64,000 bases of DNA from IMG/VR virus record IMGVR_UViG_3300020405_000002, positions 1 to 64,000 of that record; one strand, given 5' to 3'. A model generated the notes under the pieces. It was not told the origin of the DNA. It saw nothing but the letters and a program-made list of their open reading frames with translations, and made no database searches. Made by a program: the position numbers and the translations under genes. This DNA comes from a virus. Below are positions 45,841-64,000 of this stretch, one piece after another (within the stretch, counting starts at the first letter, position 1; every line of letters begins with the position of its first letter).

Positions 45841-45843
45841 TTT

Positions 45844-46254: not shown

Positions 46255-46255
46255 T

Positions 46256-46429: not shown

Positions 46430-46446
46430 ATATATTTAATTAAGGT

Positions 46447-46734
46447 TTAACAATTCCATCTGCGCCTTGCAGCCCTACCTCTAGGACCTTTCCAACCTCT
46501 ACTTCTAGCGCAAAAAGATCTACGCCTTGCGGCTCTTTTTCCAGTTGGATTTTTTTCTGTTACAGCTGTTTGAAGTTTACTGCCAGGATTTTGGCTTTTA
46601 TACGATTTTACACCAGCTTCTGTCATACCAGCACCCTCTTCTTTTGTTCTGAAGTGTCTACCTTTCCCTTTTGTTCTTTTATTAGTCTGCATTATAGGAC
46701 TTGTAAAAGGATTATTTTGTTGTATGTAAGCCAT
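46447..46734 (-). CDS. basic DUF6321-type protein, 95 aa
   Basis: Very basic, with GAGMTEAGVKSYKSQNPGSK, LQTAV and a C-terminus RSFCARSRGWKGP ending RRWNC. This pattern recalls a small conserved phage family (DUF6321, by recollection) found in late regions of marine phages. A virion or DNA-associated role is likely but unproven. It abuts the endolysin gene with a one-base overlap. Confidence 0.6.
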   Translation of the reverse strand: MAYIQQNNPFTSPIMQTNKRTKGKGRHFRTKEEGAGMTEAGVKSYKSQNPGSKLQTAVTEKNPTGKRAARRRSFCARSRGWKGPRGRAARRRWNC

Positions 46735-47192
46735 TATATTTGTATATATTTTGTTTTACCGTTTTCTTTTATTGCTTTTAATATTCTATTTCTATTATTA
46801 TCGCAATAACTAAAATGAATCCAATTTGGATTTATATCATCACCAAACTCCCATATTAATTGATCAAACTCTAGATTTTCTTTTATATAATTAAAGTAAT
46901 CAGCGTTTGTAAATTTTTTGCTATACACATCATCTATATCTATAGCTTGGCCTTTACAATGTTGTGACCGTGTACTACCGCCTATAGCTTTGTTAAGCTC
47001 AGGGCTACGATAAAATGATGATATATAAATAGGTTCGCCTATGTAAATACGTAAAGGTTCAAATACTTTATTTGCTACAGTTTGCATATTTATTAATATA
47101 TCATTTGTTGGAAAATTATCTATACCTAACCTTGTAGCTGTGTTAGATTTAGTTGCTTCCTTTAAAGAAATATGCTCACTTATATTTGTCAT
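46734..47192 (-). CDS. endolysin, M15-type peptidase
   Basis: 152 aa. The D,D-/L,D-peptidase zinc motif HxxGxAxD is present as His78 to Asp85 (HCKGQAID), with the third ligand in WIHFSY near 127. The substrate-side motif SSFYRSPELN (58-67) is also typical of the M15_3/VanY type. It cleaves peptide bonds in peptidoglycan stem peptides. No signal peptide, so it depends on the holin downstream. Confidence 0.88.
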   Translation of the reverse strand: MTNISEHISLKEATKSNTATRLGIDNFPTNDILINMQTVANKVFEPLRIYIGEPIYISSFYRSPELNKAIGGSTRSQHCKGQAIDIDDVYSKKFTNADYFNYIKENLEFDQLIWEFGDDINPNWIHFSYCDNNRNRILKAIKENGKTKYIQI

Positions 47193-47193
47193 T

Positions 47194-47346
47194 TTAATAT
47201 TTGCAAGACTGCTTCATTATAGGGTGATTATACTTCATAATTGGTCCTCTAGAACCACAGCCTTTTCCTATTTCTACTTTGCATGTAGGGCAAACTGCAG
47301 CCGAAGCTCCTCTTCTTGAATGTACTCTTTGTGTGATTGGTATCAT
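47194..47346 (-). CDS. small Cys-rich protein, 50 aa
   Basis: CPTC plus further Cys at 30 and 47 (VCPTCKVEIGKGCG) suggests a small zinc-binding knuckle. It fits between the endolysin gene and the 215-aa gene with 1-base gaps. Function unknown. Confidence 0.55.
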   Translation of the reverse strand: MIPITQRVHSRRGASAAVCPTCKVEIGKGCGSRGPIMKYNHPIMKQSCKY

Positions 47347-47347
47347 A

Positions 47348-47995
47348 TTATTTCTTTTTACCTTTTTGTTGTTTTCTATCTACATAATCTTGGTATGTTT
47401 CTCCAGGTTTTTTACTAGATCTACCACCTAATTCTTTAAACTCTGCTAAACGTCTAAACATTTCTCTAGTACGCGCCGCTCTTGCGTTGTGATCTCTTAT
47501 TCCAAATTTAAATTTACGGAACTGCACATCAAAATCTCTTGAGTTTGAATGAACACTTTCTTGACCTCTTTTATATGATCTTTCTAAATCTTTTAAATTT
47601 CTTGGACCACCTACGATAGCAGTATATTTACCTGCATCATCATAATAACCATGAACCATACCGGCGTCATCAGTTCGTATACGTGCTCTAGAGTCTGACA
47701 TCCTGTTAGTTCCATCTTCTCTTTTTTCAAAATAATAACCTTCTTGTCTTGCTGCTCTTTCTACAGCAGCTTCTGTTGGTTGATAAGCGCCTCCAGTTGT
47801 ATCTGTGTTTTTTATTCTAACAGGTATACCATCATCATCATACTCAAAATAATCTTTTCTATTTGAAGATGCGTCTTGTTCTTTACCTGTTTGAAAAAGA
47901 GCGGCATTACGCATCATCAAACCTGCATTAGATTTAAAAATGCTAGAGTCATCTATATTTTTTGGCTTGTTAAAGCCGTCCATTTTAAATGCCAT
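47348..47995 (-). CDS. hypothetical late protein, 215 aa
   Basis: Charged, Arg/Lys/Asp-rich protein with many Tyr (YFEYDDDGIPVRIK, AARTREMFRRLAEFKELGG). No membrane or signal segment. The N-terminus (MAFKMDGFNKP, GLMMRNAALFQTGK) loosely resembles that of the neighbouring 127-aa protein (ANAMKSAALYAYGKSDK), hinting at a shared virion-associated motif. Confidence 0.6.
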   Translation of the reverse strand: MAFKMDGFNKPKNIDDSSIFKSNAGLMMRNAALFQTGKEQDASSNRKDYFEYDDDGIPVRIKNTDTTGGAYQPTEAAVERAARQEGYYFEKREDGTNRMSDSRARIRTDDAGMVHGYYDDAGKYTAIVGGPRNLKDLERSYKRGQESVHSNSRDFDVQFRKFKFGIRDHNARAARTREMFRRLAEFKELGGRSSKKPGETYQDYVDRKQQKGKKK

Positions 47996-47997
47996 AA

Positions 47998-48381
47998 TTA
48001 ATCAAAAAAACTTTTAATTTTACTTTTAGCTTTATTATAAAGTCTAGGTATTTCAACAGCAAGATCTGTAGCACCTCTTGTTTTACCAACATTTACTTTA
48101 ACTTTACCACCTGCAAATTTTCTTTGCCCTGCAGACGCTTGCATACCTGTTCCTTTTTCTCCAAGTGATAGTCTTTCTCTTCTTTCAGATTCCGATTCTT
48201 TTTTCTTGTTTCCTTCTGCTTGCATTAATGCCTTGTCACTTTTGCCATAAGCATATAATGCAGCTGATTTCATAGCGTTTGCTCCTGACTTAGTAAATAC
48301 ATGTGAATCATCTGTTGACATACCTTTTGTGCCAAAATGTTTCTGTGTGAACGGCACAGCCGTTTTTCCTGGTTTTCCCAT
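47998..48381 (-). CDS. hypothetical basic late protein, 127 aa
   Basis: Basic protein with FTKSGANAMKSAALYAYGKS near the N-terminus and a Lys-rich C-terminus. Two bases from the next gene. It probably belongs with the 215-aa protein as a minor virion component; no family recognised. Confidence 0.55.
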   Translation of the reverse strand: MGKPGKTAVPFTQKHFGTKGMSTDDSHVFTKSGANAMKSAALYAYGKSDKALMQAEGNKKKESESERRERLSLGEKGTGMQASAGQRKFAGGKVKVNVGKTRGATDLAVEIPRLYNKAKSKIKSFFD

Positions 48382-48392
48382 AATAATTGTTT

Positions 48393-48701
48393 TTATACGT
48401 TTTGTTTTCTATATGCTTCGGCTTCCCACTCTAATTTTGGAGAACCTTCTTTCATTTTTTTTCTACTATACTTTTCACCTTTCCAATATACATAGTCATC
48501 ATCATACGAAAGATCTTTTCTTAATATTTGATCTCTATGTACTTTTTCATGTTTTTTAGCTAGTTTTTGTTGAACAGGTGAAAGATTTTTATTTACAACT
48601 ATTGTGCCATCGTTTAATGTAATACCATGAACATCTTTACCTAAATTTTCTTTTAAAACTAAACCACTATCTAGTATCAAGTTTTGTATGTTATTTTTCA
48701 T
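48393..48701 (-). CDS. putative HExxH metallopeptidase-like protein, 102 aa
   Basis: Start placed at ATG 48701, which forms an ATGA overlap with the upstream gene; ATG 48713 is the alternative. HEKVH at 51-55 matches the HExxH zinc motif and is followed by KLEWEAEAYR, where a third acidic ligand could lie. Small phage proteins of this type are recurrent, and their substrate is unknown. Confidence 0.5.
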   Translation of the reverse strand: MKNNIQNLILDSGLVLKENLGKDVHGITLNDGTIVVNKNLSPVQQKLAKKHEKVHRDQILRKDLSYDDDYVYWKGEKYSRKKMKEGSPKLEWEAEAYRKQNV

Positions 48702-48949
48702 TTTGTAACCCATAAATCTTGAAATTTATTTTTTGATACTATATTTTTCATAGGTGTTTCAACAACGTAGTTTGCATGTCTAAACTTATAGTTGTTTTCA
48801 GGATACATTAGCGTTCTATAACCTTTGTCATCTTCACCTAAAACTTTGAACTCTACACCTACCATAGTTATATCACCACCTTTTATAATATTTTGAGGTT
48901 TACTTACATCAGGACTGTTTTTTTTATAACCTTTTGTAGATGTCTTCAT
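48698..48949 (-). CDS. hypothetical protein, 83 aa
   Basis: Lys-rich N-terminus followed by a beta-rich core (GGDITMVGVEFKVLGEDDKG). It overlaps both neighbours by a few bases (ATGA type), so it is co-translated. No family recognised. Confidence 0.6.
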   Translation of the reverse strand: MKTSTKGYKKNSPDVSKPQNIIKGGDITMVGVEFKVLGEDDKGYRTLMYPENNYKFRHANYVVETPMKNIVSKNKFQDLWVTK

Positions 48950-49386
48950 TATCTTGTTTTGTCTTTTATCATGTTGTCTATTGCAAAACCAAAAACTTTA
49001 TCTGTATAAGATTTGTTTTTTACAAAGAAACTTCTTGTTTCTGATATATCTTCTTCACCAAGTAATATCTTATATATTCTAGTTATAAGATGTTTACACT
49101 TGTATGATATTTTATATAAATTATATTTGTTTGTAGTTCTATTTCTTTTTTGATAAACAGTAATCCAACCATCTTTTACAAGACGCTCCCACCTGTGTTT
49201 ATCCCAAGAATATGTATATACACCTTGTATATAGTCATTTCTTGAAAATATGCCTATACAATCAAAGTATATTAATAGTTCTAAATCGGCTTCTTTTAAA
49301 TTATTGTTTTTACAAGCCCATTTCCTTACTATTCTATAATATTTAAATAATTGAAGTTCGCGTATGTCGTTTGCTTCTATTTTCAT
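48949..49386 (-). CDS. winged-helix DNA-binding protein (candidate late regulator)
   Basis: 145 aa. LFKYYRIVRKWACKNNNLKE, then ADLELLIYF, then RWERLVKDGWITVYQKRN gives helix, recognition helix and wing in the order of MarR-like winged-helix proteins. It sits between GroES and small late genes. Such proteins often control transcription or DNA packaging; it could regulate the late block it lies in. Confidence 0.6.
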   Translation of the reverse strand: MKIEANDIRELQLFKYYRIVRKWACKNNNLKEADLELLIYFDCIGIFSRNDYIQGVYTYSWDKHRWERLVKDGWITVYQKRNRTTNKYNLYKISYKCKHLITRIYKILLGEEDISETRSFFVKNKSYTDKVFGFAIDNMIKDKTR

Positions 49387-54318: not shown

Positions 54319-54694
54319 TTCTGAATATAATTATACTTAATTACTAATTACATAAGTTACTAAATATTTAAGATCTAATGACTTTAGCCTGTTACTATAT
54401 AATTATTAATAGCTTATGTCACTGTGAAGGTAAAAAATATATTAGATATATTGGGGTGAAGTGCAGCAACTATACGGAGCGTTACCGTACTCGAACTGAA
54501 AACGCTTTTCTACACCCAGCCCCACCTTGATTTCTATTTCTGTAAAAAAACTTTTAGCTTTTACGCCCCCCGGGCCTAGGCCATAGTACAGAGCTTACCG
54601 TGTATAGCAACTATACGAAGCATTCTTAACTATAAAATGATAATATATATGTAATTAATTTTACAACTTTATTATTAAATTAAAATTATATATT
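54319..54694. promoter_or_regulatory. divergent intergenic region between late and early blocks
   Basis: 376 bases with no gene. It separates the leftward late block from the rightward early block, so it must hold promoters for both. The left part is AT-rich with TATAAT-like sequence on the minus strand (54334-54339). The middle (54450-54605) is unusually GC-rich and foldable: AGCGTT/AACGCT pair at 54478-54483/54501-54506, and GGCCTAGGCC is a perfect palindrome at 54573-54582. The right end carries an early promoter motif. A replication or packaging site here is possible. Confidence 0.6.
54614..54644 (+). promoter_or_regulatory. early promoter motif copy 1 (TACGA-N20-GATAAT)
   Basis: TACGA 54614-54618 and GATAAT 54639-54644 are spaced by exactly 20 bases, 50 bases ahead of the 54695 gene. 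A degraded relative (TACGG-N20-GAAAAC) lies at 54473-54503. Confidence 0.7.
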
Positions 54695-54946
54695 ATGAAA
54701 ACAAGTAAAAAAGTAAAAGTAACAAAAGTAAAAAGATTTGTATTATCACAAAAGAACGTTAAAGACAAAGACTTGATACTAGAGTTTACTACACACGAAG
54801 GTGTAACACATCAGTACTCACCATCTAAAGTATTCGCACAATTAAAAGATAGATTTGAAGCGATGCCATGTTGGTCTAAGTATAAAAGTTATACTAACAG
54901 TAAAAATCTACCAAGATTTGTACGAGACTTAGAAACTATTGTTTAA
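54695..54946 (+). CDS. hypothetical early protein, paralogue A, 83 aa
   Basis: Basic N-terminus (KKVKVTKVKRFVLSQKNVKD), a beta-rich centre and the conserved end FEAMPCWSKYKSYTNSKNLP. About 60 percent identical by eye to the protein at 55260, with the same length and leader sequence. An early, highly positioned duplicated pair suggests a host-takeover or regulatory role, but no known domain is recognised. Confidence 0.7.
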   Translation: MKTSKKVKVTKVKRFVLSQKNVKDKDLILEFTTHEGVTHQYSPSKVFAQLKDRFEAMPCWSKYKSYTNSKNLPRFVRDLETIV

Positions 54947-54986
54947 CCAAACGACCTGAGCATGTCATTAAACTGCTTTTTTTATT

Positions 54987-55085
54987 ATGAACTTTATAGA
55001 GATTTTAGAAACTATTTCACTTTACGGAGTATACTGTGTAGCGATACTAATGATAATAAGTATACTTAACGCCTTCTTCTTTTGA
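54987..55085 (+). CDS. possible 32-aa membrane peptide
   Basis: Short frame coding a mostly hydrophobic peptide (SLYGVYCVAILMIISILNAF) after a T-rich leader. It occupies the gap between the duplicated genes. Size makes it uncertain. Confidence 0.35.
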   Translation: MNFIEILETISLYGVYCVAILMIISILNAFFF

Positions 55086-55090
55086 GAAGG

Positions 55091-55183
55091 TGTATAGCAT
55101 GTATAGCAATGTATAGCAAAGCATAGAAGAGTGAAGAGCAGTGAAGCGAAGAAGAGTATGCGATATGTGTATAGCAAATACGA
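55091..55183 (+). repeat. TATAGCA short repeats, cluster 1
   Basis: TATAGCA at 55093, 55102, 55112 and 55170 (another at 54603), mixed with purine-rich GAAG/GCGAAG units (GAAGCGAAGAAGAGTA at 55143-55158). Non-coding, upstream of paralogue B, and running into its promoter motif. Confidence 0.7.
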
Positions 55184-55209
55184 AGCACTCCTCATTTAAA
55201 ACTGATAAT
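55179..55209 (+). promoter_or_regulatory. early promoter motif copy 2
   Basis: TACGA 55179-55183, 20 bases, GATAAT 55204-55209; 50 bases ahead of the 55260 start, the same distance as in copy 1. Confidence 0.72.
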
Positions 55210-55259
55210 ATTAATGTTATTAATTTAACAAAATCTTTATAAATTTAAAATTATATATT

Positions 55260-55514
55260 ATGAAAAGTAAAAATTCAAAAGTAACAGTACAAAAGGTAAA
55301 AAGGTTTGTACTATCAAAGAAGAATGTTAAGCAAAGTGATTTGGTTTTATCGTTCACTACAAAAGAAGGCAAAGAATACAAGTATTCACCTTCAAAGGTA
55401 TACGAGCAACTCAAAGAGCGATTCGAAGCAATGCCTTGCTGGCACAAGTACGGAAATTATACAAATACTAATAATTTACCTCGCTTCGTTCGCGAACTCG
55501 ACAACATCGAGTAA
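55260..55514 (+). CDS. hypothetical early protein, paralogue B, 84 aa
   Basis: Second member of the tandem pair: VQKVKRFVLSKKNVK, YSPSKVYEQLKERFEAMPCW and NLPRFVREL match paralogue A. The promoter motif and the leader AAAATTATATATTATG are duplicated with the gene, so each copy is its own transcription unit. A perfect terminator hairpin follows at once. Function unknown. Confidence 0.72.
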   Translation: MKSKNSKVTVQKVKRFVLSKKNVKQSDLVLSFTTKEGKEYKYSPSKVYEQLKERFEAMPCWHKYGNYTNTNNLPRFVRELDNIE

Positions 55515-55520
55515 CATTCA

Positions 55521-55547
55521 AAAGGTCAAGCATTGCGCTTGGCCTTT
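55521..55547 (+). terminator. terminator after paralogue B
   Basis: An 11-bp stem, AAAGGTCAAGC/GCTTGGCCTTT (one G-U), with a 5-base loop, directly after the stop codon. The U-run is short (TTTAT), so efficiency is uncertain. Confidence 0.7.
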
Positions 55548-55548
55548 A

Positions 55549-55640
55549 TGTATAGCAAAGCAGAGTAAAGAAGAGAAAAGTGTGCAAGAAAAGAAAAAGA
55601 TGCTTGTATAGCAAAGCGAAGCGAAGAAAAGAAGAGTAAT
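55549..55640 (+). repeat. TATAGCA / GCGAAG repeats, cluster 2
   Basis: TATAGCA at 55551 and 55607, each followed by AAGC and purine tracts (GCGAAGCGAAGAAAAGAAGA at 55615-55634) that echo cluster 1. Non-coding. Confidence 0.65.
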
Positions 55641-55782
55641 TCTTTACTAAAAGGGTGACAGAAGGGTGTTACTAGTCTTATCTTACTACCTATTGTCACA
55701 CTACTTACAAGTTTTTCACATACTGGGGTTTTCTTTTAGACCTCCACTATATTTCCTACAAGTAAACAAGTTATCAACCTTA

Positions 55783-55814
55783 TACGATGCACCAATTATA
55801 TAAGCACTGATATT
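55783..55814 (+). promoter_or_regulatory. early promoter motif copy 3 (variant)
   Basis: TACGATGCACC then GATATT after 21 bases instead of 20; 45 bases ahead of the 55859 gene. The only copy with changed spacing and -10-like box. Confidence 0.55.
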
Positions 55815-55858
55815 ATTATAAATTTAAAATTATTTAATAACCTTTAAAATTATATATT

Positions 55859-56071
55859 ATGACTTCAAAAATTAAATATTCACCGACAACTAATAAACCT
55901 TATATTATTATTAAAAATAAGAAATACTTCGGTTTTACACTCGACAAAGTTCCTCAAAGATTTGCAAGTGACAAAGATACAAGTATCAGAAACTGGTTTA
56001 ACCTCAAAGGTTATACATTTCTGTCTCGCGAAGATTTTGTAGACATGTATGGTAATTATACAATAGAATAA
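55859..56071 (+). CDS. hypothetical early protein, 70 aa
   Basis: Basic, Tyr/Lys-rich protein (KIKYSPTTNKPYIIIKNKKY). It shares the leader AAAATTATATATTATG with the duplicated pair. First of a run of small early genes. Function unknown. Confidence 0.65.
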   Translation: MTSKIKYSPTTNKPYIIIKNKKYFGFTLDKVPQRFASDKDTSIRNWFNLKGYTFLSREDFVDMYGNYTIE

Positions 56072-56104
56072 ACTTATACACTAAATATTTAAAATTATAT
56101 AACT

Positions 56105-56278
56105 ATGAAAACATTATTAAAATTTGAGCACGAGATTTGGTTTTTTGAAGGTCAAGAACCTTTATACCTAACCACAGAGAAAAACACTTTACAAGAAATT
56201 ATAAAATTTTTAGATGAGATTGATATACCATCTGAAAATATAGAATCTATTAAAACTATAAAATTAATAACTAAATGA
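56105..56278 (+). CDS. hypothetical early protein, 57 aa
   Basis: Acidic small protein (FEHEIWFFEGQEPLYLTTEK) preceded by the AAAATTATATAACTATG leader. Its stop overlaps the next start (ATGA). No family recognised. Confidence 0.55.
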   Translation: MKTLLKFEHEIWFFEGQEPLYLTTEKNTLQEIIKFLDEIDIPSENIESIKTIKLITK

Positions 56279-56451
56279 GTAAACAAGAATTAATAGACGA
56301 AGTATACAATCAAGTGATACAAGAGTATTCTCACCTCGCAGATGAGTATGAGGGTGATGAATTACAAGATAAGATCATGGAAATAGTAGACAGAGAAATA
56401 AAAGATATAACTAACAGTAAAAAAATAAATAATGGAAATAAGAATATATGA
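56275..56451 (+). CDS. hypothetical early protein, 58 aa
   Basis: Acidic helical peptide (LIDEVYNQVIQEYSHLADEY) in an ATGA overlap with the upstream gene; overlaps the next by 20 bases. Similar in style to the 45-aa protein at 56712 (both begin MSK and a helix). Confidence 0.55.
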   Translation: MSKQELIDEVYNQVIQEYSHLADEYEGDELQDKIMEIVDREIKDITNSKKINNGNKNI

Positions 56452-56581
56452 CCAAGAAACAACTAACGAAATAGATAGAATACACTTAGATGTTACCGAT
56501 GGAAAACCGTCAAAAGAATTAATTAATAATATCTTGAGAACACAGTATAATTTAGATAAAGTGTTCTGGAGTATAATGTAA
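56432..56581 (+). CDS. hypothetical early protein, 49 aa
   Basis: Small acidic protein (EIRIYDQETTNEIDRIHLDV) ending KVFWSIM. Overlapping start, no recognised family. Confidence 0.5.
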   Translation: MEIRIYDQETTNEIDRIHLDVTDGKPSKELINNILRTQYNLDKVFWSIM

Positions 56582-56586
56582 TAGAT

Positions 56587-56715
56587 ATGGATAAATTAGA
56601 TTTAGATTTTACTTATGAGCAACTAATGCAGTGGAAACAAAGTGATTGTGTACACCTCGCATTACAACAACAAGAAATAATAAAAAAGTTAAACCCAGAT
56701 AATTTTGAACTATGA
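56587..56715 (+). CDS. hypothetical early protein, 42 aa
   Basis: Small helical protein (LDFTYEQLMQWKQSDCVHLA) five bases after the previous stop, with an ATGA overlap to the next gene. Confidence 0.5.
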   Translation: MDKLDLDFTYEQLMQWKQSDCVHLALQQQEIIKKLNPDNFEL

Positions 56716-56849
56716 GTAAATTACAACAAGAAACAATAGATAAACTATACAACCATTTCAAAAAGGAAAGACCTGACCTGTCTGATACTCACGTTATGGA
56801 TATGGTGTATGATTTTATACATAACTCACTAATGATGAGAGGTGAATAA
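56712..56849 (+). CDS. hypothetical early protein, 45 aa
   Basis: Helical peptide (QQETIDKLYNHFKKERPDLS) closing the small-gene run just ahead of promoter copy 4. Confidence 0.5.
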   Translation: MSKLQQETIDKLYNHFKKERPDLSDTHVMDMVYDFIHNSLMMRGE

Positions 56850-56854
56850 CTTTA

Positions 56855-56885
56855 TACGACACACTTTATTAAACTATATGATAAT
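56855..56885 (+). promoter_or_regulatory. early promoter motif copy 4
   Basis: TACGACACACT, exact 20-base spacing, GATAAT at 56880-56885; 17 bases before ATG 56903. Begins 5 bases after the previous stop. Confidence 0.75.
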
Positions 56886-56902
56886 ATAATAAATTATAAA
56901 TT

Positions 56903-57118
56903 ATGACAAACTTATGTAAATGTGGCAACGTTATACCACAAGGCCGTGTAGATCTCGGCTACAAAAACTGCGTGCAATGTAGCTCTGTCGAGCCATATGG
57001 TTGTGTACCTGTTACCAATCATAAAACCGGCAATGCTATACACGTTTTGCCTTTATCACAGGCACAAGCAATCAACAAGTCATTTCAACGTAAAGGTTAT
57101 GGCACATGTCTAAAATAA
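56903..57118 (+). CDS. small Cys-cluster protein, 71 aa
   Basis: CKCGN near residue 5, then CVQCSS near 23, and further Cys residues; four Cys in CxC and CxxC arrangement could form a zinc ribbon. C-terminus is basic. First gene after promoter copy 4. Possibly nucleic-acid or protein binding. Confidence 0.6.
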   Translation: MTNLCKCGNVIPQGRVDLGYKNCVQCSSVEPYGCVPVTNHKTGNAIHVLPLSQAQAINKSFQRKGYGTCLK

Positions 57119-57125
57119 ATAAACT

Positions 57126-57365
57126 ATGCAAGTAAGATTAATCAAAGAAGAAAATTTAGATCACTTAAAAGAAGTAATCAGAGTAGAATACAACGCAAGT
57201 ACAGATACTTATGTTTATTCTTGTGATACTTTCACGAGATACTGTGATAGTATAGAAGAAATATTTAAATTAAATGATAAAGAATATTACAATATGTTAG
57301 AAGAAGACTGTAAAGAATTTAAAAAACAATATAATGAAAAATGTAACAATAACATTAAAAAGTAG
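57126..57365 (+). CDS. hypothetical early protein, 79 aa
   Basis: Acidic protein (LIKEENLDHLKEVIRVEYNA, then CDTFTRYCDSIEEIFKLND). It overlaps the next small gene by 32 bases. No family recognised. Confidence 0.55.
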   Translation: MQVRLIKEENLDHLKEVIRVEYNASTDTYVYSCDTFTRYCDSIEEIFKLNDKEYYNMLEEDCKEFKKQYNEKCNNNIKK

Positions 57366-57462
57366 TTTACCTACAAAAGAATTGAACAAAGTAATGGAAG
57401 ATATGCTCTGGGATTCAGAGTATAGTTACCAATTTGAAGATGCAGAGTGGAATATAAAATAA
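57334..57462 (+). CDS. hypothetical early protein, 42 aa
   Basis: Small acidic protein (SLPTKELNKVMEDMLWDSEY). Short but gene-like in composition and position. Confidence 0.45.
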   Translation: MKNVTITLKSSLPTKELNKVMEDMLWDSEYSYQFEDAEWNIK

Positions 57463-57467
57463 ATAAT

Positions 57468-57587
57468 ATGAAAAAAGAAATAGATATAAATAGATTAAAT
57501 GAATCTGCTTATTATACTTATGGTGTAAGCTTTGGTGATTTAACACCACAGCAACAACAAGTAATAGTAGAATTTATAGATAAATAA
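57468..57587 (+). CDS. hypothetical early protein, 39 aa
   Basis: Small protein (YGVSFGDLTPQQQQVIVEFI) ending 5 bases before the first tRNA-like gene. Confidence 0.5.
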   Translation: MKKEIDINRLNESAYYTYGVSFGDLTPQQQQVIVEFIDK

Positions 57588-57592
57588 AAAAA

Positions 57593-57732
57593 GTACGGAT
57601 AGCTCAGTCGGTAGAGCAGTGTGGCTTAACTTACAAGTGTAACGGTATGGCTTAATTACCCATACTCAGTTTAGACGCGGAAAATAATTTGTAAGGTCGC
57701 AAAGGTCGTAGGTTCGAGTCCTACTCCGTATA
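57593..57732 (+). tRNA. tRNA-like gene with a 65-nt insertion in the anticodon loop
   Basis: Acceptor stem GTACGGA (57593-57599)/TCCGTAT (57725-57731), 7 bp with one G-U. D-arm GCTC/GAGC (57602-57605/57614-57617). T-arm GTAGG-TTCGAGT-CCTAC (57708-57724). Anticodon stem TGTGG (57620-57624)/TCGCA (57697-57701), 5 bp with two wobbles. Between the stem halves lie 72 bases instead of 7. TAA occurs at 57627-57629 and 57692-57694; removing the 65 bases from one copy to the other leaves the loop CTTAAGG with U33 and anticodon UAA, and a 75-nt tRNA. The insert folds: CTTACAA/TTGTAAG (57630-57636/57689-57695) and GTATGG/CCATAC (57645-57650/57660-57665). The short variable loop does not fit tRNA-Leu, so identity is open. 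Confidence 0.7.
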
Positions 57733-57734
57733 GA

Positions 57735-57975
57735 GTATATAGCTGTAGTGCATAGGAACTCAGGGAGGAGATACGTGCGCAGGCTATTGAAGTGTCAGGA
57801 ACGACTGTAGATAATCTAAGGGAGGCGATGTAACTTCGTTCAGAAGTGAGCCCATAGTGAATTAGGTTGTAGGTCGGAAAGATGATATAAACAGTTATGC
57901 ATGTGTGTCTTGTTGACATGAGAGACATTACGGAAGTGTATTGCATATCATTCCTGTTTCATCCACTTCTTTTTT
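57735..57975 (+). ncRNA. structured non-coding RNA of unknown class
   Basis: About 240 bases, clearly GC-richer than the flanks, with no convincing ORF on either strand. Helices: ACTTC/GAAGT (57833-57837/57843-57847), GATGATAT/ATATCATT (57881-57888/57945-57952, one G-U) and GTCT/AGAC (57907-57910/57923-57926). It ends in GGAAGTG/CACTTCT (57932-57938/57964-57970) plus six T, a terminator-like end; AGAAGTG at 57842 could pair with the same CACTTCT. No RNase P, tmRNA or group I core motif was recognised. Confidence 0.5.
57932..57975 (+). terminator. putative terminator ending the structured RNA
   Basis: A 7-bp stem, GGAAGTG/CACTTCT, with a 25-base loop followed by TTTTT. It lies directly before the second tRNA-like gene. 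The alternative pairing of CACTTCT with AGAAGTG at 57842 makes a long-range closing stem instead. Confidence 0.45.
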
Positions 57976-57976
57976 A

Positions 57977-58112
57977 GAGATGAGTGCTGCCTTGGTGGCC
58001 GGAGTGTTTTTTGCGCTTTTAGTATTTGGAGCGCGCGGTTTCATATCCGTATAATTTTGACACACACGTTAGGTTAATAATAAATGAGAGGTTCGAATCC
58101 TCGCTCATCTCC
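57977..58112 (+). tRNA. second interrupted tRNA-like gene (long variable arm)
   Basis: Acceptor pairing is perfect: GAGATGAG (57977-57984)/CTCATCTC (58104-58111). T-arm GAGG-TTCGAAT-CCTC (58088-58102) is canonical in loop. The anticodon stem may be GTGTT (58004-58008)/GACAC (58059-58063), with 50 bases between instead of 7, including GCGC/GCGC and CGG/CCG hairpins. A ~23-base stretch between this stem and the T-arm looks like a long variable arm (Leu/Ser/Tyr class). The D-arm is poor, and the anticodon cannot be fixed. It may be a decayed or intron-like-interrupted tRNA. Confidence 0.45.
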
Positions 58113-58128
58113 TATATAGTTTACGTTA

Positions 58129-58159
58129 TACGACACACTATATAATAGTAACTGATAAT
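58129..58159 (+). promoter_or_regulatory. early promoter motif copy 5
   Basis: TACGACACACT, exact 20-base spacing, GATAAT 58154-58159; 17 bases before ATG 58176 and heading a long operon of small genes. Confidence 0.75.
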
Positions 58160-58175
58160 AATAATAAATATAAAT

Positions 58176-58358
58176 ATGAACACAGAACAACTAAAGCGTA
58201 AAATTGCAAGGCAACAAGCGCAACAAAACAACTTGTTTAAACGACAAGCACCTACTACGTTTAAAAAACGTACTAGAGTAACATATAGTCGTAATACGTT
58301 GTGGTTACCGATTAACCACGCACGTACTTACTATACACATGTAAAATATGCGTTATGA
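58176..58358 (+). CDS. small basic Gln/Arg-rich protein, 60 aa
   Basis: N-terminus QLKRKIARQQAQQNNLFKRQ, then a basic Thr/Tyr-rich tail. Likely nucleic-acid binding by composition. First gene after promoter copy 5; ATGA overlap with the next. Confidence 0.6.
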   Translation: MNTEQLKRKIARQQAQQNNLFKRQAPTTFKKRTRVTYSRNTLWLPINHARTYYTHVKYAL

Positions 58359-58495
58359 AATTAAATAAAGAACAAAAAAAGGCAGCAATGAATAGTTTGC
58401 TACTAAACCCTATGTTTATGAAAAAAATAGCAGCGCAAGGTTATACACCAATACAATTAAGAGAATTATTAATTAAACTAGAACAACAATTATGA
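58355..58495 (+). CDS. hypothetical early protein, 46 aa
   Basis: Helical basic peptide (KEQKKAAMNSLLLNPMFMKK, then YTPIQLRELLIKLEQQL). Overlaps both neighbours by ATGA. Confidence 0.55.
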   Translation: MKLNKEQKKAAMNSLLLNPMFMKKIAAQGYTPIQLRELLIKLEQQL

Positions 58496-58629
58496 AAACT
58501 TATTTATGTACAGAACACGGAGAGAGATTTACAATAAAAGCTAAAGATACAGCTGACGCTCAAGAACAAGCAATGTTATGGGGTGCTGAAGTTATAGGCG
58601 AAGTAATAAACGGAGAGGTAAGAATATGA
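58492..58629 (+). CDS. hypothetical early protein, 45 aa
   Basis: Small protein (YLCTEHGERFTIKAKDTADA, then AMLWGAEVIGEV) resembling the short stress-like or regulator folds that place a CxxHG turn at the start. Not assignable. ATGA overlaps on both sides. Confidence 0.55.
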   Translation: MKTYLCTEHGERFTIKAKDTADAQEQAMLWGAEVIGEVINGEVRI

Positions 58630-58898
58630 TGGCAACACTTAACTTACGGCAAAACGAAAATGTATCACCTAGCCAAGTTATGATTTTTATTAATTTAGAA
58701 ATACAAAGGCATTTAAGTGATAAAGAATATTGGGGCACAGAACAAAATATAAAGCAAGAAAACTTTATATATGATTATGCGCTGAAGAATAAAATAGTAG
58801 ATCAAGACTGGTTTGATGCAAGGTTAAAACATACCTGTATTGAGATGCTACAAGATTTATATAATGTATTTTCAGAAAAATATTATGCAAAAGGATAA
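58626..58898 (+). CDS. hypothetical early protein, 90 aa
   Basis: Helical protein (VSPSQVMIFINLEIQRHLSD, DYALKNKIVDQDWFDARLKH). Two adjacent start ATGs; the first forms an ATGA with the upstream stop. No family recognised. Confidence 0.6.
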   Translation: MMATLNLRQNENVSPSQVMIFINLEIQRHLSDKEYWGTEQNIKQENFIYDYALKNKIVDQDWFDARLKHTCIEMLQDLYNVFSEKYYAKG

Positions 58899-59094
58899 AA
58901 AAATATTTTATTGGAATGAAGACACTGTAGATTACTACGTAAGACACGAAGAAACCAATGGTTGGCCAAGCACGGCAACACGTATATTAGAATTTGTAAC
59001 TAACGAATGTGATTTAGAGGAGGATGAAACTGTTATAGATCTATTTAGATCTTTATCAGAAGCAGTATATAATAAGATTAATTATGCAGGATAA
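58885..59094 (+). CDS. hypothetical acidic early protein, 69 aa
   Basis: Start set at ATG 58885; the longer frame from 58840 adds 15 residues from the shadow of the upstream gene. Acidic, aromatic N-terminus (KIFYWNEDTVDYYVRHEETN) and helical remainder. It overlaps the next gene by 11 bases. Confidence 0.6.
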   Translation: MQKDKKIFYWNEDTVDYYVRHEETNGWPSTATRILEFVTNECDLEEDETVIDLFRSLSEAVYNKINYAG

Positions 59095-59203
59095 AAAAGA
59101 CATAATAGAAGAAGTGTTATACTGGCTTGAACATACTACTATGTCAAGAGAGGCAATAACAGATATATTTAAAGATAAACTAAAAGAAATAAATAATGAG
59201 TAA
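59084..59203 (+). CDS. hypothetical early protein, 39 aa
   Basis: Acidic/basic helical peptide (DIIEEVLYWLEHTTMSREAI). Overlaps both neighbours slightly. Confidence 0.5.
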   Translation: MQDKKDIIEEVLYWLEHTTMSREAITDIFKDKLKEINNE

Positions 59204-59447
59204 ACAAGGATATATAACAATATTAGATTTTGAAATAGGTAGTGTATTTCAATATGAAATAGCAGATATGAACATGCAAACAGAAGCATGCGAGCAATTT
59301 ATAGAAGATAAAGGCCATAATGTTACTAACTGTGAATGGATGATGCATAAAGATGGCACTATAAAGTTTGATTACCCTAAAGAGGTAACAGAAGATTTAA
59401 GACGTATTGATATTAATATGGATGGAACAAGAGAAATTTGTGGATAA
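59196..59447 (+). CDS. hypothetical acidic early protein, 83 aa
   Basis: Beta strand followed by helix (ITILDFEIGSVFQYEIADMN, CEQFIEDKGHNV, CEWMMHKDG). The composition recalls small phage inhibitors, but no family is recognised. Confidence 0.6.
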   Translation: MSKQGYITILDFEIGSVFQYEIADMNMQTEACEQFIEDKGHNVTNCEWMMHKDGTIKFDYPKEVTEDLRRIDINMDGTREICG

Positions 59448-59448
59448 C

Positions 59449-59604
59449 ATGAATAAATATAAATATAAAGTTATGACTGTATTAGACACAATAGCTGATG
59501 AAAAGTATGCAGAGTTTGGCTTTGATACATGCGATAGTAATCAGAAAGAAGAAATACTTCGTTGCTATACACAATTACTTTTAAGCGTAAACAAAAAACA
59601 ATGA
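59449..59604 (+). CDS. hypothetical early protein, 51 aa
   Basis: Start at ATG 59449, one base after the previous stop; the frame from 59407 adds shadow residues. Mostly helical (VMTVLDTIADEKYAEFGFDT). Ends in an overlap with the next start at 59601. Confidence 0.5.
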   Translation: MNKYKYKVMTVLDTIADEKYAEFGFDTCDSNQKEEILRCYTQLLLSVNKKQ

Positions 59605-59843
59605 GAATAGAACTAGAAGTAACAAAAACAACAGATGATTTTCTTACAGATATATATAAGTATAACTGTAAAATATCAGATATACTAATGGGTCCTAATA
59701 AAAACTTGTGTTTTTATATTGAAGGGTCTGAAGTAAACTTAATGAAGTTTTACTTTGAGCATTACTGTGATGAATCAACAGCACAAGATGCAAAAGATTT
59801 TTATAATTATGTAATAGAAAAAAAGCAAAGATGGAACACATAA
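59601..59843 (+). CDS. hypothetical early protein, 80 aa
   Basis: Start at ATG 59601 with ATGA overlap; the ATG at 59562 lies in the upstream gene. Mixed strand/helix (RIELEVTKTTDDFLTDIYKY, NLCFYIEGSEVNLMKFYFEH). Overlaps the next gene by 13 bases. Confidence 0.55.
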   Translation: MRIELEVTKTTDDFLTDIYKYNCKISDILMGPNKNLCFYIEGSEVNLMKFYFEHYCDESTAQDAKDFYNYVIEKKQRWNT

Positions 59844-60175
59844 AAGAATTAGAAAAATTATTAGATATAACAATAACAGAAGACTTTACAGGTATTGCTG
59901 ATCTTACTATAGAAACAAGATATACGGCTGACCAATATGAAGTTTATGTAATAACAGATGCTCGCTACGACTCAGCACTTATATTTGACGAAGACGTTTT
60001 TTATTACGAACCGGGTTTTGAAGATGATATAATGAGTAGAGTTAAAAGCTTAGATTCTGGATCTACTGTATTTGTCAGTGACATTGAAACTTTCTTCCCT
60101 GAAGAAGCTGTTCATGTTTGGATTATGGATTACAAAGAAGCACAAGAAACATTTAAAAACGTAGACGATGAGTAG
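59831..60175 (+). CDS. hypothetical acidic early protein, 114 aa
   Basis: Strongly acidic (ITEDFTGIADLTIETRYTAD, then DEDVFYYEPGFEDD). Such acidic early proteins can mimic DNA or inhibit host nucleases and polymerases, but no specific evidence is seen. Ends in TAG overlapping the next gene by 8 bases. Confidence 0.6.
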   Translation: MEHIKELEKLLDITITEDFTGIADLTIETRYTADQYEVYVITDARYDSALIFDEDVFYYEPGFEDDIMSRVKSLDSGSTVFVSDIETFFPEEAVHVWIMDYKEAQETFKNVDDE

Positions 60176-60455
60176 AAGTTATCCTATATGGAACGAAATA
60201 AATTCATGCGCATATGCAGGTAATAAAAGCTATGGTATAAAAGAGCATGGTGAGCTTACTTGTTATATAGGTACAAGCGCTAGTAGATCTTATGAATTTT
60301 TTACTCATAAGGTAACACATAGACAGCTTGATAATAATACGCATGAGTATAGATATTATGTAGACAATAAGTTAATTAAAAGAGCTACATACAGGCACAA
60401 ACAAGACACAATGTTAATTACTAAATATGGAAATAACGAGCAAACTAAAATATAA
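60168..60455 (+). CDS. hypothetical early protein, 95 aa
   Basis: Tyr/Ser/His-rich, beta-type (YPIWNEINSCAYAGNKSYGI, ELTCYIGTSASRSYEFFTHK). The pattern suggests a compact beta-barrel; no known family. It overlaps the next gene by 29 bases. Confidence 0.6.
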   Translation: MSRSYPIWNEINSCAYAGNKSYGIKEHGELTCYIGTSASRSYEFFTHKVTHRQLDNNTHEYRYYVDNKLIKRATYRHKQDTMLITKYGNNEQTKI

Positions 60456-60603
60456 AATACAAGGACCAAGAGAAACTGCATATAATGTATGGCGTGTACA
60501 TTGGAAAGCAGGTAAACTATTAGCAGGTTATGAAGATTTTACTACTCATGAAGCTGCAGAAGAATATGTAAAAGAATTACACGAAAAATATGTAACAAAA
60601 TAA
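60427..60603 (+). CDS. hypothetical early protein, 58 aa
   Basis: YNVWRVHWKAGKLLAGYEDF followed by an acidic helix (HEAAEEYVKELHEKY) gives a strand-strand-helix layout common in small phage proteins. Function unknown. Confidence 0.55.
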   Translation: MEITSKLKYKIQGPRETAYNVWRVHWKAGKLLAGYEDFTTHEAAEEYVKELHEKYVTK

Positions 60604-60605
60604 TT

Positions 60606-60842
60606 ATGGCAAACATGAGTTATTGTAGGTACGAAAACACCTCAAAAGATTTACAAGACTGCGTTGATACCTTATGGGATAGCGACTGCAGCGAAGACTT
60701 ATCATCTATATATGAAGTTCAAGGCCTTAAAAAATTACTAGACCTTGCACATGAAATAGTTAATATGGAAGATAAAATAATTAATATATTAGAAAATCAA
60801 CATAAAGATGTTGTAAAAAAAGATATTTGGAAAAATGGATAA
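60606..60842 (+). CDS. conserved small phage protein (MANMSYCR type), 78 aa
   Basis: The start MANMSYCRYENTSKDLQDC recalls a small family common in Bacteroidetes phages. Acidic middle and helical C-terminus (GLKKLLDLAHEIVNMEDKII). Function unknown. Confidence 0.65.
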   Translation: MANMSYCRYENTSKDLQDCVDTLWDSDCSEDLSSIYEVQGLKKLLDLAHEIVNMEDKIINILENQHKDVVKKDIWKNG

Positions 60843-61125
60843 ACAATATATAGATGATCGTATAGAAGCTATGCTTATTTCTAAAATAGCTCACTATAGA
60901 TTAAAAGTTAGAGAAAAATATAGACTACGGCATGTACAAAATGGTATTAATGATACTATAACAGATAAAGAAAACCGTATGTTATATCTACGTGCTGCTA
61001 TAAGAGATTTAAAAGTATGGCTTACTATAGCTAAATTAATAGATAAAGCAAAATATCCTATGGATATACATAGAAATATTATACCTTATCCAACACATAT
61101 GGCTAAAGAATTAACGAGTGAATGA
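60835..61125 (+). CDS. hypothetical basic early protein, 96 aa
   Basis: Arg/Lys-rich helical protein (IAHYRLKVREKYRLRHVQNG, then YLRAAIRDLKVWLTIAKLID). Possibly nucleic-acid binding. It overlaps the previous gene by 8 bases. Confidence 0.6.
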   Translation: MDKQYIDDRIEAMLISKIAHYRLKVREKYRLRHVQNGINDTITDKENRMLYLRAAIRDLKVWLTIAKLIDKAKYPMDIHRNIIPYPTHMAKELTSE

Positions 61126-61138
61126 AGTAAAAATACAA

Positions 61139-61282
61139 ATGTGGATTATGGATTACATGGGAGCACCGTGGAACTTTGATATTATAAATCATATGATCCA
61201 CACTTTTCATGAACAGTTTACTCCTGAAGAACAAGTACGTTGTTTAGGTTTACTGTATAGAGAATACGATGCGTATAAATAA
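61139..61282 (+). CDS. hypothetical early protein, 47 aa
   Basis: Aromatic small protein (MWIMDYMGAPWNFDIINHMI). An in-frame GTG at 61118 would add 7 residues. Its 3' end contains the upstream half of promoter copy 6, so the promoter is embedded in coding sequence. Confidence 0.55.
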   Translation: MWIMDYMGAPWNFDIINHMIHTFHEQFTPEEQVRCLGLLYREYDAYK

Positions 61283-61295
61283 GTTAAATGATAAT
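61265..61295 (+). promoter_or_regulatory. early promoter motif copy 6
   Basis: TACGATGCGTA, exact 20-base spacing, GATAAT 61290-61295; 24 bases before ATG 61319. TACGA falls inside the preceding coding sequence, showing the motif is constrained in spite of coding. Confidence 0.7.
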
Positions 61296-61318
61296 ATAAT
61301 AAATAACAAACAACAACT

Positions 61319-61723
61319 ATGGATTTAAATAAAGAAGATTACAGAAGTTTAAAAACTTTCTTAAGTAATATAAATTACAGCAGAAAGCCTTGGCGTCCTG
61401 AAGACGTAACAACAAGTGTTGATGTAAATAAAATTGAGCGGCGATACTACGCTGCTATACACCAACTGCCTTTTATATGCTCTTCAAGATTTGCAGAAGA
61501 GGGCTGGTATACTGATGCCTTTGACGAATACCATAAGTCAGATGACGATGGTGTTAAGATATATGGCCCACAGTATTGGCGTACAGAATATGAAGGCGTA
61601 TGGTATCTTATTAATAATGAAGGTTATGATTATGCAAGATATGTAACACAATTAGTTAATTACTCAACAAAAGAGTTTAAAGATAATTTTGTAACAGGTT
61701 ATAGCCCAGCAATACTATATTAA
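61319..61723 (+). CDS. hypothetical early protein, 134 aa
   Basis: First gene after promoter copy 6. Charged N-terminus, then an aromatic-rich half (YYAAIHQLPFICSSRFAEEG, YEGVWYLINNEGYDYARYVT). No domain recognised; the Tyr/Asp-rich repeats resemble small phage inhibitor proteins only loosely. Confidence 0.6.
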   Translation: MDLNKEDYRSLKTFLSNINYSRKPWRPEDVTTSVDVNKIERRYYAAIHQLPFICSSRFAEEGWYTDAFDEYHKSDDDGVKIYGPQYWRTEYEGVWYLINNEGYDYARYVTQLVNYSTKEFKDNFVTGYSPAILY

Positions 61724-61978
61724 ATGAAAGCAAAAATAAAACAAGTACCATATACACTTGGATCTGGTACAGACAAGGAAAAAACAATAAATCAATGGCG
61801 ATTAACGTGGATTGCACCAAGTAAAACAATAACAACTTTTCATAATTCACTTGAAGAAGTTTTTAACGCAATGCGTGATCATCAAAGAAATAAAGAATTA
61901 TATGAGCTTGAAGATCAAGCTATAACTGAATGGTATGAAGAAAACAGAAAAAATGGATCTAATTGGACTGGTGACTAA
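61724..61978 (+). CDS. hypothetical early protein, 84 aa
   Basis: Starts directly after the previous stop. Beta-rich N-terminus (TLGSGTDKEKTINQWRLTWI) and helical acidic C-terminus. Overlaps the next gene by 26 bases. Confidence 0.6.
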   Translation: MKAKIKQVPYTLGSGTDKEKTINQWRLTWIAPSKTITTFHNSLEEVFNAMRDHQRNKELYELEDQAITEWYEENRKNGSNWTGD

Positions 61979-62147
61979 GTATAAAGACTTAGAAGACCGT
62001 AAAAACGAAATAGAAGATATTATTTTAAAAGGCGGCAATAGTCTAGATGTACAAATGGAACTGTTAACTGAATATAGAGATATATTTAAAAAAATATCAG
62101 ATCAGAAAAATAAAATATCTAATGCTGTATACGATACACCTAGATAA
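61953..62147 (+). CDS. hypothetical coiled-coil early protein, 64 aa
   Basis: Start chosen at ATG 61953 rather than 61935 to limit overlap. Long helix (LVTKYKDLEDRKNEIEDIIL, then LLTEYRDIFKKISDQKNKIS). Its 3' end contains the TACGA half of promoter copy 7. Confidence 0.55.
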   Translation: MDLIGLVTKYKDLEDRKNEIEDIILKGGNSLDVQMELLTEYRDIFKKISDQKNKISNAVYDTPR

Positions 62148-62160
62148 TTTTTGTGATAAT
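62130..62160 (+). promoter_or_regulatory. early promoter motif copy 7
   Basis: TACGATACACC, exact 20-base spacing, GATAAT 62155-62160. If transcription starts near 62167, the first usable ATG is 62194 rather than 62169. Confidence 0.72.
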
Positions 62161-62193
62161 AATAAATAATGTTTAATTTAAATTTAATAAAAA

Positions 62194-62720: not shown

Positions 62721-62864
62721 ATGAATGAGATATTTTCAATGGGTGATTTACCCAATGCATTTTATATAACGCCAAGCGTTGCTATAATAAATGACGATAA
62801 ATATACAATATTACAGATATGTATATTTAAATGGTTTTTAGATATAACACTTAAATCAAAATGA
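62721..62864 (+). CDS. hypothetical early protein, 47 aa
   Basis: Small protein (FSMGDLPNAFYITPSVAIIN) with a hydrophobic C-terminal half. It overlaps the DnaA-like gene by an ATGA. Confidence 0.5.
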   Translation: MNEIFSMGDLPNAFYITPSVAIINDDKYTILQICIFKWFLDITLKSK

Positions 62865-63358
62865 ACGAGAAAGCAAAATTAGAAATAATAAGAGATCTTG
62901 TACAATCACAACTAGGCATACCAGACATTGGTAGCAAAAAAAGGTTTTTAGACAATGTGTTTGCAAGAAATTTATATTTTGTTTTATCAGTTAACTTAAC
63001 TAAATACTCAAGCTTAGATCGTATAGGCAGCGTGGTGAACAGACATCACGCTACTGTACTACATGGTATACAAAAATATCAAGATGTAGTAATAGATTCG
63101 AAAGATAAAAGATTTAGTTATTTAATAGAAGCTTACGATAATATAGAAAAGTTTATTTTAGAAAAAGAAGCAAAAGAAACAGAAGAACAAGAAGAGTTAG
63201 AGATGAATATAACAAACTTTAAAGTGCTCGAGAATAGAATAAACAACATTATATTTAGACTAAACTTACTAGAACGGAAAAACAGAATTATACAAGAACA
63301 ACTAAACAATGTTACAAGAGAATATGACAACAGACAAGCTGTTGAAGGAAATAGTTGA
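62861..63358 (+). CDS. DnaA domain IV-like DNA-binding protein
   Basis: 165 aa. Residues ~25-75 carry the DnaA C-terminal fold: FARNLYFVLSVNLTKYSSLD, then IGSVVNRHHATVLHGIQKYQ, where RHHATVLH (61-68) is the DnaA signature (usual form RxHTTVLH) that reads the DnaA box. There is no AAA+ ATPase domain. The C-terminal half (~100-165) is a Glu-rich coiled coil. It could bind phage or host DnaA boxes, to start phage replication or block host initiation. Ends in TGA; overlaps the KTSC gene. Confidence 0.8.
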   Translation: MNEKAKLEIIRDLVQSQLGIPDIGSKKRFLDNVFARNLYFVLSVNLTKYSSLDRIGSVVNRHHATVLHGIQKYQDVVIDSKDKRFSYLIEAYDNIEKFILEKEAKETEEQEELEMNITNFKVLENRINNIIFRLNLLERKNRIIQEQLNNVTREYDNRQAVEGNS

Positions 63359-63557: not shown

Positions 63558-63783
63558 AATATTAGAGTATATAAAAAGTAAAAGAAAGAAAAAACTACGT
63601 AAAATACATATGATACGTAGGTTAAAAACAAGATCTTTCAAGTACAAGTATACTTTAATTAATTTATGTATAAGCTATGCTGCAAAAGGTTTAAAACAAG
63701 GACGATTTATATATAGAGTTAGAAAAACAGTTAAACTTTTAATGCGAAACGAAGAGTTATTAAATAAAGTAAAAAAGAAGTGA
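63535..63783 (+). CDS. small highly basic protein, 82 aa
   Basis: Lys/Arg-rich (ILEYIKSKRKKKLRKIHMIR) with a small hydrophobic patch. Likely nucleic-acid binding. It overlaps the KTSC gene by 23 bases. Confidence 0.55.
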   Translation: MNGNYVNKILEYIKSKRKKKLRKIHMIRRLKTRSFKYKYTLINLCISYAAKGLKQGRFIYRVRKTVKLLMRNEELLNKVKKK

Positions 63784-63814
63784 CAGAAGATTATTATATT
63801 AACAAGCTATTGTC

Positions 63815-64000
63815 ATGCGGAATATGAGCTACTTAGATGTAAATAAAATTATATACAGGCGCGATCCAGTATCTGACTTACCTACGTATCATACAAAAGA
63901 TTATATGTTTTATGAACAAGGTACGCACCAGTGTTATGAGTTATTTAGAACTAAAGCTAAAATTACAACTATAAGATCTTTAGTATGGCATTTAACTGTT
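63815..64000 (+). CDS. 5' part of an unidentified gene (runs off the window)
   Basis: An open frame starts at ATG 63815 (or 63824, in frame) and continues to the edge. The 62 visible residues (YLDVNKIIYRRDPVSDLPTY, then HTKDYMFYEQGTHQCYELFR) are not recognisable. Confidence 0.5.
   Translation, partial: MRNMSYLDVNKIIYRRDPVSDLPTYHTKDYMFYEQGTHQCYELFRTKAKITTIRSLVWHLTV

What the first reader, a model, noticed from the sequence alone, without database searches (positions are those of the whole stretch)
54614..62160. Repeated two-part early promoter TACGA-N20-GATAAT
Seven copies (54614, 55179, 55783, 56855, 58129, 61265, 62130), all on the plus strand and all shortly upstream of a gene or operon start. 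Six have exactly 20 bases between TACGA and GATAAT; one has 21 and GATATT. Extended consensus TACGAnRCAy..tGATAATA. The two halves sit where -35 and -10 boxes would be, but the upstream box matches neither TTGACA nor the Bacteroidetes TTTG/TAnnTTTG type. None was noticed ahead of late genes. This points to an early promoter class read by a phage-encoded or altered host sigma/RNA polymerase. In two cases the upstream half lies inside coding sequence, so it is constrained twice.
Basis: seen in the sequence. Interest (0 to 1): 0.8.

Follow-up and report, generated by a model that had tools for sequence, protein, structure and literature searches.

The report
Early-arm promoters of sigma-carrying flavobacterial phages
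Seven near-identical two-part switches in front of a phage's first genes are real promoters, belong to a family shared by many uncultured marine and freshwater phages thought to infect Bacteroidetes, and are most likely read by a promoter-recognition protein (sigma factor) that each of these phages carries itself.

Summary
The window is part of a 68.7-kb phage record; just past the window end the phage encodes its own sigma-70 factor (record 64425-65177). Seventy-six IMG/VR relatives carry this sigma; in them TAC[AG]A-N19-21-GATAAT occurs 281 times on the sigma/early strand and 3 times on the other. The family consensus is TTACAAACTAAATACGA-N8-[G/C]GATAATATA; the window's TACGAnRCA is a sub-clade variant. 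In 225 unique sites picked by the two boxes alone, the base 12 nt after the G of GATAAT is a purine in 99%: an initiator exactly where +1 should be. The sites do not fit the Bacteroidetes housekeeping consensus TAnnTTTG, are nearly absent from cellular genomes, and absent or sporadic in three related phages without this sigma. No RNA-polymerase signature was found in the giant virion proteins. Best reading: early-arm promoters used by host core RNAP with the phage sigma. That sigma reads them, and that they are early, are inferences; covariation tests were inconclusive. A palindromic operator tracking a neighbouring HTH gene adds a second regulatory layer.

The parts
54614..54644 (+). promoter copy 1 (TACGA-N20-GATAAT); predicted +1 = G at 54651; gene starts 54695
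55179..55209 (+). promoter copy 2; predicted +1 = G at 55216; gene (paralogue of the first) starts 55260
55783..55814 (+). promoter copy 3 (N21, GATATT); predicted +1 = A at 55821; gene starts 55859
56855..56885 (+). promoter copy 4; predicted +1 = A at 56892; gene starts 56903
58129..58159 (+). promoter copy 5; predicted +1 = A at 58166; gene starts 58176
61265..61295 (+). promoter copy 6; upstream box inside the last codons of ORF 61118-61282; predicted +1 = A at 61302; gene starts 61319
62130..62160 (+). promoter copy 7; upstream box inside the last codons of ORF 61935-62147; ATG at 62169, so almost leaderless; the +1 position is T, the one exception of the seven
63815..64000 (+). HTH protein gene (215 aa; continues past the window end to record 64462). 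It overlaps the phage sigma-70 gene, which lies wholly beyond the window at record 64425-65177 (250 aa; L008 10425-11177)
   Evidence: HTH. Sigma: Pfam PF04542/PF04545; TIGR02937 65 bits against cut-off 42.9; PHROG 351 E=1e-22; PDB RpoS/FliA
54378..54422 (.). degenerate copy (15/20) of a palindrome GTGACAATAG-N24..26-CTATTGTCAC at the head of the minus-strand arm
55655..55699 (.). good copy (18/20) of the same palindrome, upstream of promoter copy 3
63780..63816 (.). third copy (17/20, spacing shortened to 17) overlapping the HTH start codon

Best explanation
The repeats are sigma-70-type promoters. TACGAnRCA sits at about -37 to -29, GATAAT at -12 to -7, and transcription starts on a purine 7 bases after GATAAT. 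They drive the block of small genes at the head of the replication arm. The most likely reader is the host core RNA polymerase carrying the phage's own sigma-70 factor, encoded in the same arm (record 64425-65177) and probably co-transcribed with an HTH regulator. Shown: the promoters' fixed geometry, strand and location bias, clade-wide conservation, +1 purine, presence of sigma. Inferred: that this sigma reads them; that the genes are early; that sigma is topped up by read-through from these promoters (positive feedback); that the HTH protein binds the palindromes and regulates its own operon and the divergent region.
For: Chance is excluded. TAC[AG]A-N19-21-GATAAT: 281 plus against 3 minus in loci fetched mainly because they encode the sigma. 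Most loci with enough upstream sequence have a per-genome consensus with the same 25-bp box-to-box distance. In 30 whole records the matches cluster in one arm. 82% of 392 sites have an ORF's ATG within 60 nt, against 20% of random positions. In 225 unique sites chosen by the boxes alone, the base 12 nt after the first base of GATAAT is A/G in 99%, while neighbouring positions hold little or no G. Host sigma-A (TAnnTTTG at -12..-5, PMC9723704) does not fit: of 392 sites 1 has G at -5, 1 has T at -6, 5 have T at -8. A scan of IMG/VR for the family promoter gave at least 119 stretches, against 3 in about 85,000 cellular genomes. 33 of 37 long contigs found by promoter alone encode the sigma, and the longest exception breaks at the missing sigma region. 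Related phages without this sigma have 0, 0 and 2 matches. Three phages share the TACGAnRCA variant, with sigmas 61-74% identical to the window's. No RNAP signature in the giant virion proteins.
Against: If sigma is needed, something must make the first sigma: an early box lies within 300 bp of the HTH-sigma operon in only 1 of 72 loci and no clear host promoter was found there; virion delivery was not testable. Promoter divergence tracks the whole genome: sigma's partial correlation is 0.28 (p 0.017) with the divergent lineages included but not significant without them, and an exonuclease does as well. Column-wise mutual information is as noisy. L067 has a different -35 box with an ordinary recognition helix. 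Only three sigma-less relatives were compared. No transcript data.
Confidence: 0.7

Rival explanations
1. The promoters are read by the host RNA polymerase with a host sigma factor (housekeeping or alternative), perhaps helped by a phage activator such as the HTH protein on the upstream box; the phage sigma then reads other, later promoters.
For: Explains how genes ahead of sigma could be transcribed at once. The upstream block varies more between lineages than the -10 block. One HTH-less genome (L070) lacks the TTACAAAC box.
Against: The sites mismatch TAnnTTTG at -12, -8, -6 and -5 in nearly all copies. The family promoter is almost absent from cellular genomes. A second HTH-less genome (L083/G057) keeps an upstream box. 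Sigma-54 and ECF motifs known in flavobacteria look different.
Confidence: 0.17
2. A phage-encoded RNA polymerase injected with the virion (as in N4 or crAss-like phi14:2) reads them.
For: Distant kin of crAss-like phages: a muzzle domain hit in the 2531-aa virion protein; giant virion proteins of unknown function.
Against: No conserved DxDGD catalytic motif and no Pfam, PHROG or PDB match to an RNA polymerase in the giant proteins examined. The two-box geometry with +1 seven bases after the -10 is that of a sigma-70 holoenzyme. A sigma factor would be superfluous.
Confidence: 0.05
3. The repeats are operators of a phage regulator, not promoters.
For: Repeated, conserved and upstream of genes; probable operators occur nearby (palindrome).
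Against: Two asymmetric boxes at fixed distance, all in gene orientation, next start codon within 60 nt in 82%, near-invariant +1 purine.
Confidence: 0.03

Closest known systems
phiEco32 / 7-11 phage sigma factors and their promoters (PMC4331800)
   Same: Podovirus with two divergent gene arms, own sigma factor, phage-specific promoters inferred from genome sequence, host core RNAP implied.
   Different: There sigma serves middle and late promoters with a TGATGT/TATA-type motif and the early ones are host sigma-70. Here a two-box promoter is repeated about 5-11 times in the early arm, none was found ahead of structural genes, and no host-type promoter stands out there.
T4 gp55 and SPO1 gp28/gp33-34 sigma factors (from general knowledge)
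   Same: Phage sigma redirects host core polymerase to phage promoters.
   Different: They control late or middle genes; T4 late promoters have only a -10 box; neither has TACRA-N20-GATAAT.
Bacteroidetes sigma-A promoters, TAnnTTTG (PMC9723704)
   Same: Two-part promoter with the downstream box at -12 to -5.
   Different: Sequence at -12, -8, -6 and -5 is incompatible; upstream box differs.
N4 / crAss-like phi14:2 early promoters read by virion RNAP (N4: PMC4496689 abstract; phi14:2 from memory)
   Same: Promoters ahead of early genes of a podovirus-like phage.
   Different: No polymerase signature found here; sigma-70 geometry instead.

Membership tests
promoters of a phage-encoded sigma-70 factor | phage encodes a sigma-70 family protein | tested here: met
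   Pfam, NCBIfam above cut-off, PHROG 351, PDB, Foldseek
promoters of a phage-encoded sigma-70 factor | sigma-70 geometry: -35 and -10 boxes, +1 purine about 7 nt after -10 | tested here: met
   fixed box distance; +1 purine in 99% of 225 unique sites
promoters of a phage-encoded sigma-70 factor | motif and sigma occur together | tested here: met
   only three sigma-less relatives examined
promoters of a phage-encoded sigma-70 factor | promoter specificity covaries with sigma recognition residues | tested here: inconclusive
promoters of a phage-encoded sigma-70 factor | holoenzyme with this sigma initiates at them | not testable with these tools
   needs in vitro transcription
Bacteroidetes sigma-A promoter | TAnnTTTG at -12 to -5 | tested here: not met
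virion RNA polymerase promoter | a phage RNA polymerase gene | tested here: not met
   no match or conserved DxDGD motif in the giant virion proteins; not every small ORF was scanned
early promoter | active at once after infection | not testable with these tools
   inferred only from position ahead of small genes and replication genes

The most novel reading that the evidence does not exclude
The phage sigma travels in the virion and is injected with the DNA, so that host core polymerase is commandeered for the very first phage transcripts: an early programme that never uses host sigma.
Probability: 0.18. Interest if true: 0.82.

Novelty: new variant of a known kind. Interest (0 to 1): 0.58.

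Why it matters
It gives a defined promoter class, a predicted start site and a candidate dedicated sigma factor for an abundant, uncultured group of aquatic phages. It makes testable how such phages start transcription in bacteria whose own promoters (TAnnTTTG) are unusual. The promoter-sigma pair could also serve as an orthogonal expression tool in Bacteroidetes, and the lineage variants (GGATAAT, CGATAAT, TGATAAT, TATAATA; TTACAAAC, TTGCAGA, TACGAnRCA) are a natural series for sigma specificity.

Tried and rejected
Virion RNAP: searched the giant virion proteins, nothing found. Host sigma-A promoters on the early arm: strict matches at background level. Covariation of promoter with sigma: partial Mantel and mutual-information tests did not single sigma out, so not used as proof. 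HTH protein as reader of the upstream box: one HTH-less genome lacks the box (L070) but another keeps one (L083), so not adopted. RNA structure in the HTH-sigma leader: no consensus fold; the element proved to be a DNA palindrome. Late promoter motif: none found de novo. A possible counter-example, G097 (9 promoters, no sigma), starts inside the helicase gene and ends in an early gene, so the sigma region is simply missing. The 64277 match: taken as coding conservation. AlphaFold models were of low confidence (sigma 64, HTH 69.5); only the sigma-2 helices were confident, and Foldseek of the HTH model gave nothing significant. Literature searches found no description of this motif, but only open-access PMC text was searched.

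Full report
What was checked. The gapped pattern has 7 matches against 0.29 expected and none on minus. In the whole 68,734-bp record a weight matrix separates the seven (32-38 bits) from one weaker site at 64277 (19.5) and from background (13 or less).

What the genome is. The minus arm (about 6-54 kb) holds portal (PHROG 6547), large terminase (PHROG 6681), virion proteins, GroEL and tail fibres; one 2531-aa protein has a crAss-type muzzle C-terminal domain. The plus arm starts at 54.6 kb with small genes and runs into an HTH protein, a sigma factor, a PDDEXK/exonuclease VIII-like protein and a primase-helicase; plus-strand genes at the record start (ribonucleotide reductase) continue it if the record is circularly permuted. 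Nearest cultured relatives by terminase and virion protein are Cellulophaga (phi38:1, Calle) and Flavobacterium (elemo) phages; the nearest by terminase in the phage collection is the uncultured MW202828 at 63%. The host is therefore taken to be a Bacteroidetes bacterium, by inference. This sigma has no match in the phage collection.

The sigma factor. Record 64425-65177, beyond the window end, encodes 250 aa with sigma-70 regions 2 and 4, TIGR02937 above its cut-off, PHROG 351 and PDB matches to RpoS and FliA. Foldseek agrees, although the model is poor outside region 2.

The promoter is clade-wide. A search with this sigma brought 76 IMG/VR loci. TAC[AG]A-N19-21-GATAAT occurs 281 times on the sigma strand and 3 times on the other. 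Per-genome consensus: TTACAAACTAAATACGA-N8-[GC]GATAATATA in most. The TAC[AG]A-to-GATAAT distance equals that in the window, so TACGAnRCA is read here as the local version of TACAAAC. Variants: window phage, L009 and L368/G111 TACGAnRCA with TGATAAT or TGATAT; L017/L083 TTGCAGA with AAGATAATA; L067 ATATAAGTTT; L070 AAAAACGAC with TATAATA. All copies in a genome shift together, as expected if one trans-acting reader imposes the specificity. In 30 whole records the matches cluster in the early arm.

It marks transcription starts. 82% of 392 sites have an ORF's ATG within 60 nt, against 20% of random positions. Six of the seven window copies obey; 62130 has T there and an ATG two bases on.

Who reads it. 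Flavobacterial sigma-A wants TAnnTTTG at -12 to -5 (PMC9723704); the sites do not have it, and such promoters are at background on the early strand. The family promoter occurs in at least 119 IMG/VR stretches but in only 3 stretches of about 85,000 cellular genomes, all Flavobacteriaceae MAGs. Of 37 long contigs fetched by promoter alone, 33 encode the sigma; G097 (65.9 kb) lacks it because the contig is broken there, and the other three (45-54 kb) are probably fragments. MW202828, phi38:1 and elemoA, which lack this sigma, have 0, 0 and 2 matches. No RNA polymerase signature was found. Phage sigma on host core is the simplest reader. Two attempts to prove it by covariation failed to discriminate: promoter distance correlates with sigma distance (r 0.73) but also with other replication-arm genes (0.66-0.71); sigma's partial r is 0.28 (p 0.017), and 0.06 (not significant) without the divergent lineages; mutual information was noisy.

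How it would work. Some first sigma is made (weak start or read-through) or injected; sigma-holoenzyme then fires the early-arm promoters; read-through supplies more HTH and sigma. The HTH start overlaps a palindrome, GTGACAATAG-N24-26-CTATTGTCAC, that recurs mostly 100-500 bp upstream of an early promoter, in the divergent region. It is found in 70 of 71 HTH-bearing loci and in neither of the two near-complete HTH-less genomes nor in the three outgroups, so the HTH protein is its likely ligand. How late genes are switched on is open; two structural genes carry a conserved AT-rich box right before their ATG.

Known or new. Phage sigma factors with phage-specific promoters are a known kind (phiEco32 and 7-11, PMC4331800). 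New here are the clade's promoter, its restriction to the early arm upstream of the sigma gene, and the palindrome. No description was found in open-access text.

Noticed in passing
54378-54422, 55655-55699, 63780-63816; e.g. L039 1252, 1853 and 9250: Palindrome GTGACAATAG-N24-26-CTATTGTCAC at the HTH-sigma operon start and in the divergent region; present in 70 of 71 HTH-bearing loci, absent from two near-complete HTH-less genomes. Likely operator of the HTH protein.
   Followed up: partly
minus-strand genes starting at 25431 and 28231, and orthologues: A conserved AT-rich box (ATTTAATTATATTATATT or ATTATATAATATTTTAT) lies directly before the ATG of two structural genes in most of ten genomes; in one case it follows a terminator-like hairpin. 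Candidate late start signal.
   Followed up: partly
L085/L086 (MW202828) 44573-48962: ATCGGTGTCGTTAACGACACAA, a palindrome, repeated about 7 times in leaders of early genes of the sigma-less relative.
   Followed up: no
just upstream of copies 1 and 2 (about 54602 and 55168); also L009, L067, L070, L012: GTATAGCA box just upstream of the -35 region of some early promoters, about 7-8 times enriched.
   Followed up: partly
54695-54946 and 55260-55514: Tandem paralogous genes (83 and 84 aa), each with its own promoter copy.
   Followed up: no
L008 10425-10463 (record 64425-64463), first 13 residues of sigma: N-terminus MKKYNVQNY[IV]RYK is nearly invariant in sigma factors otherwise about 40% identical to the window's; possible core-binding or other fixed contact.
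   Followed up: no
leaders downstream of early promoters in relatives (L009-L084): Starts on G have longer leaders (median 22 nt, often ATGTAA around the start), starts on A shorter ones (median 10 nt).
   Followed up: no
62861-63358: Small protein with a DnaA C-terminal (domain IV) DNA-binding domain (PF08299).
   Followed up: no
L382 and L383: Two Flavobacteriaceae MAGs carry the family promoter consensus ahead of what looks like the same gene; origin unclear.
   Followed up: no
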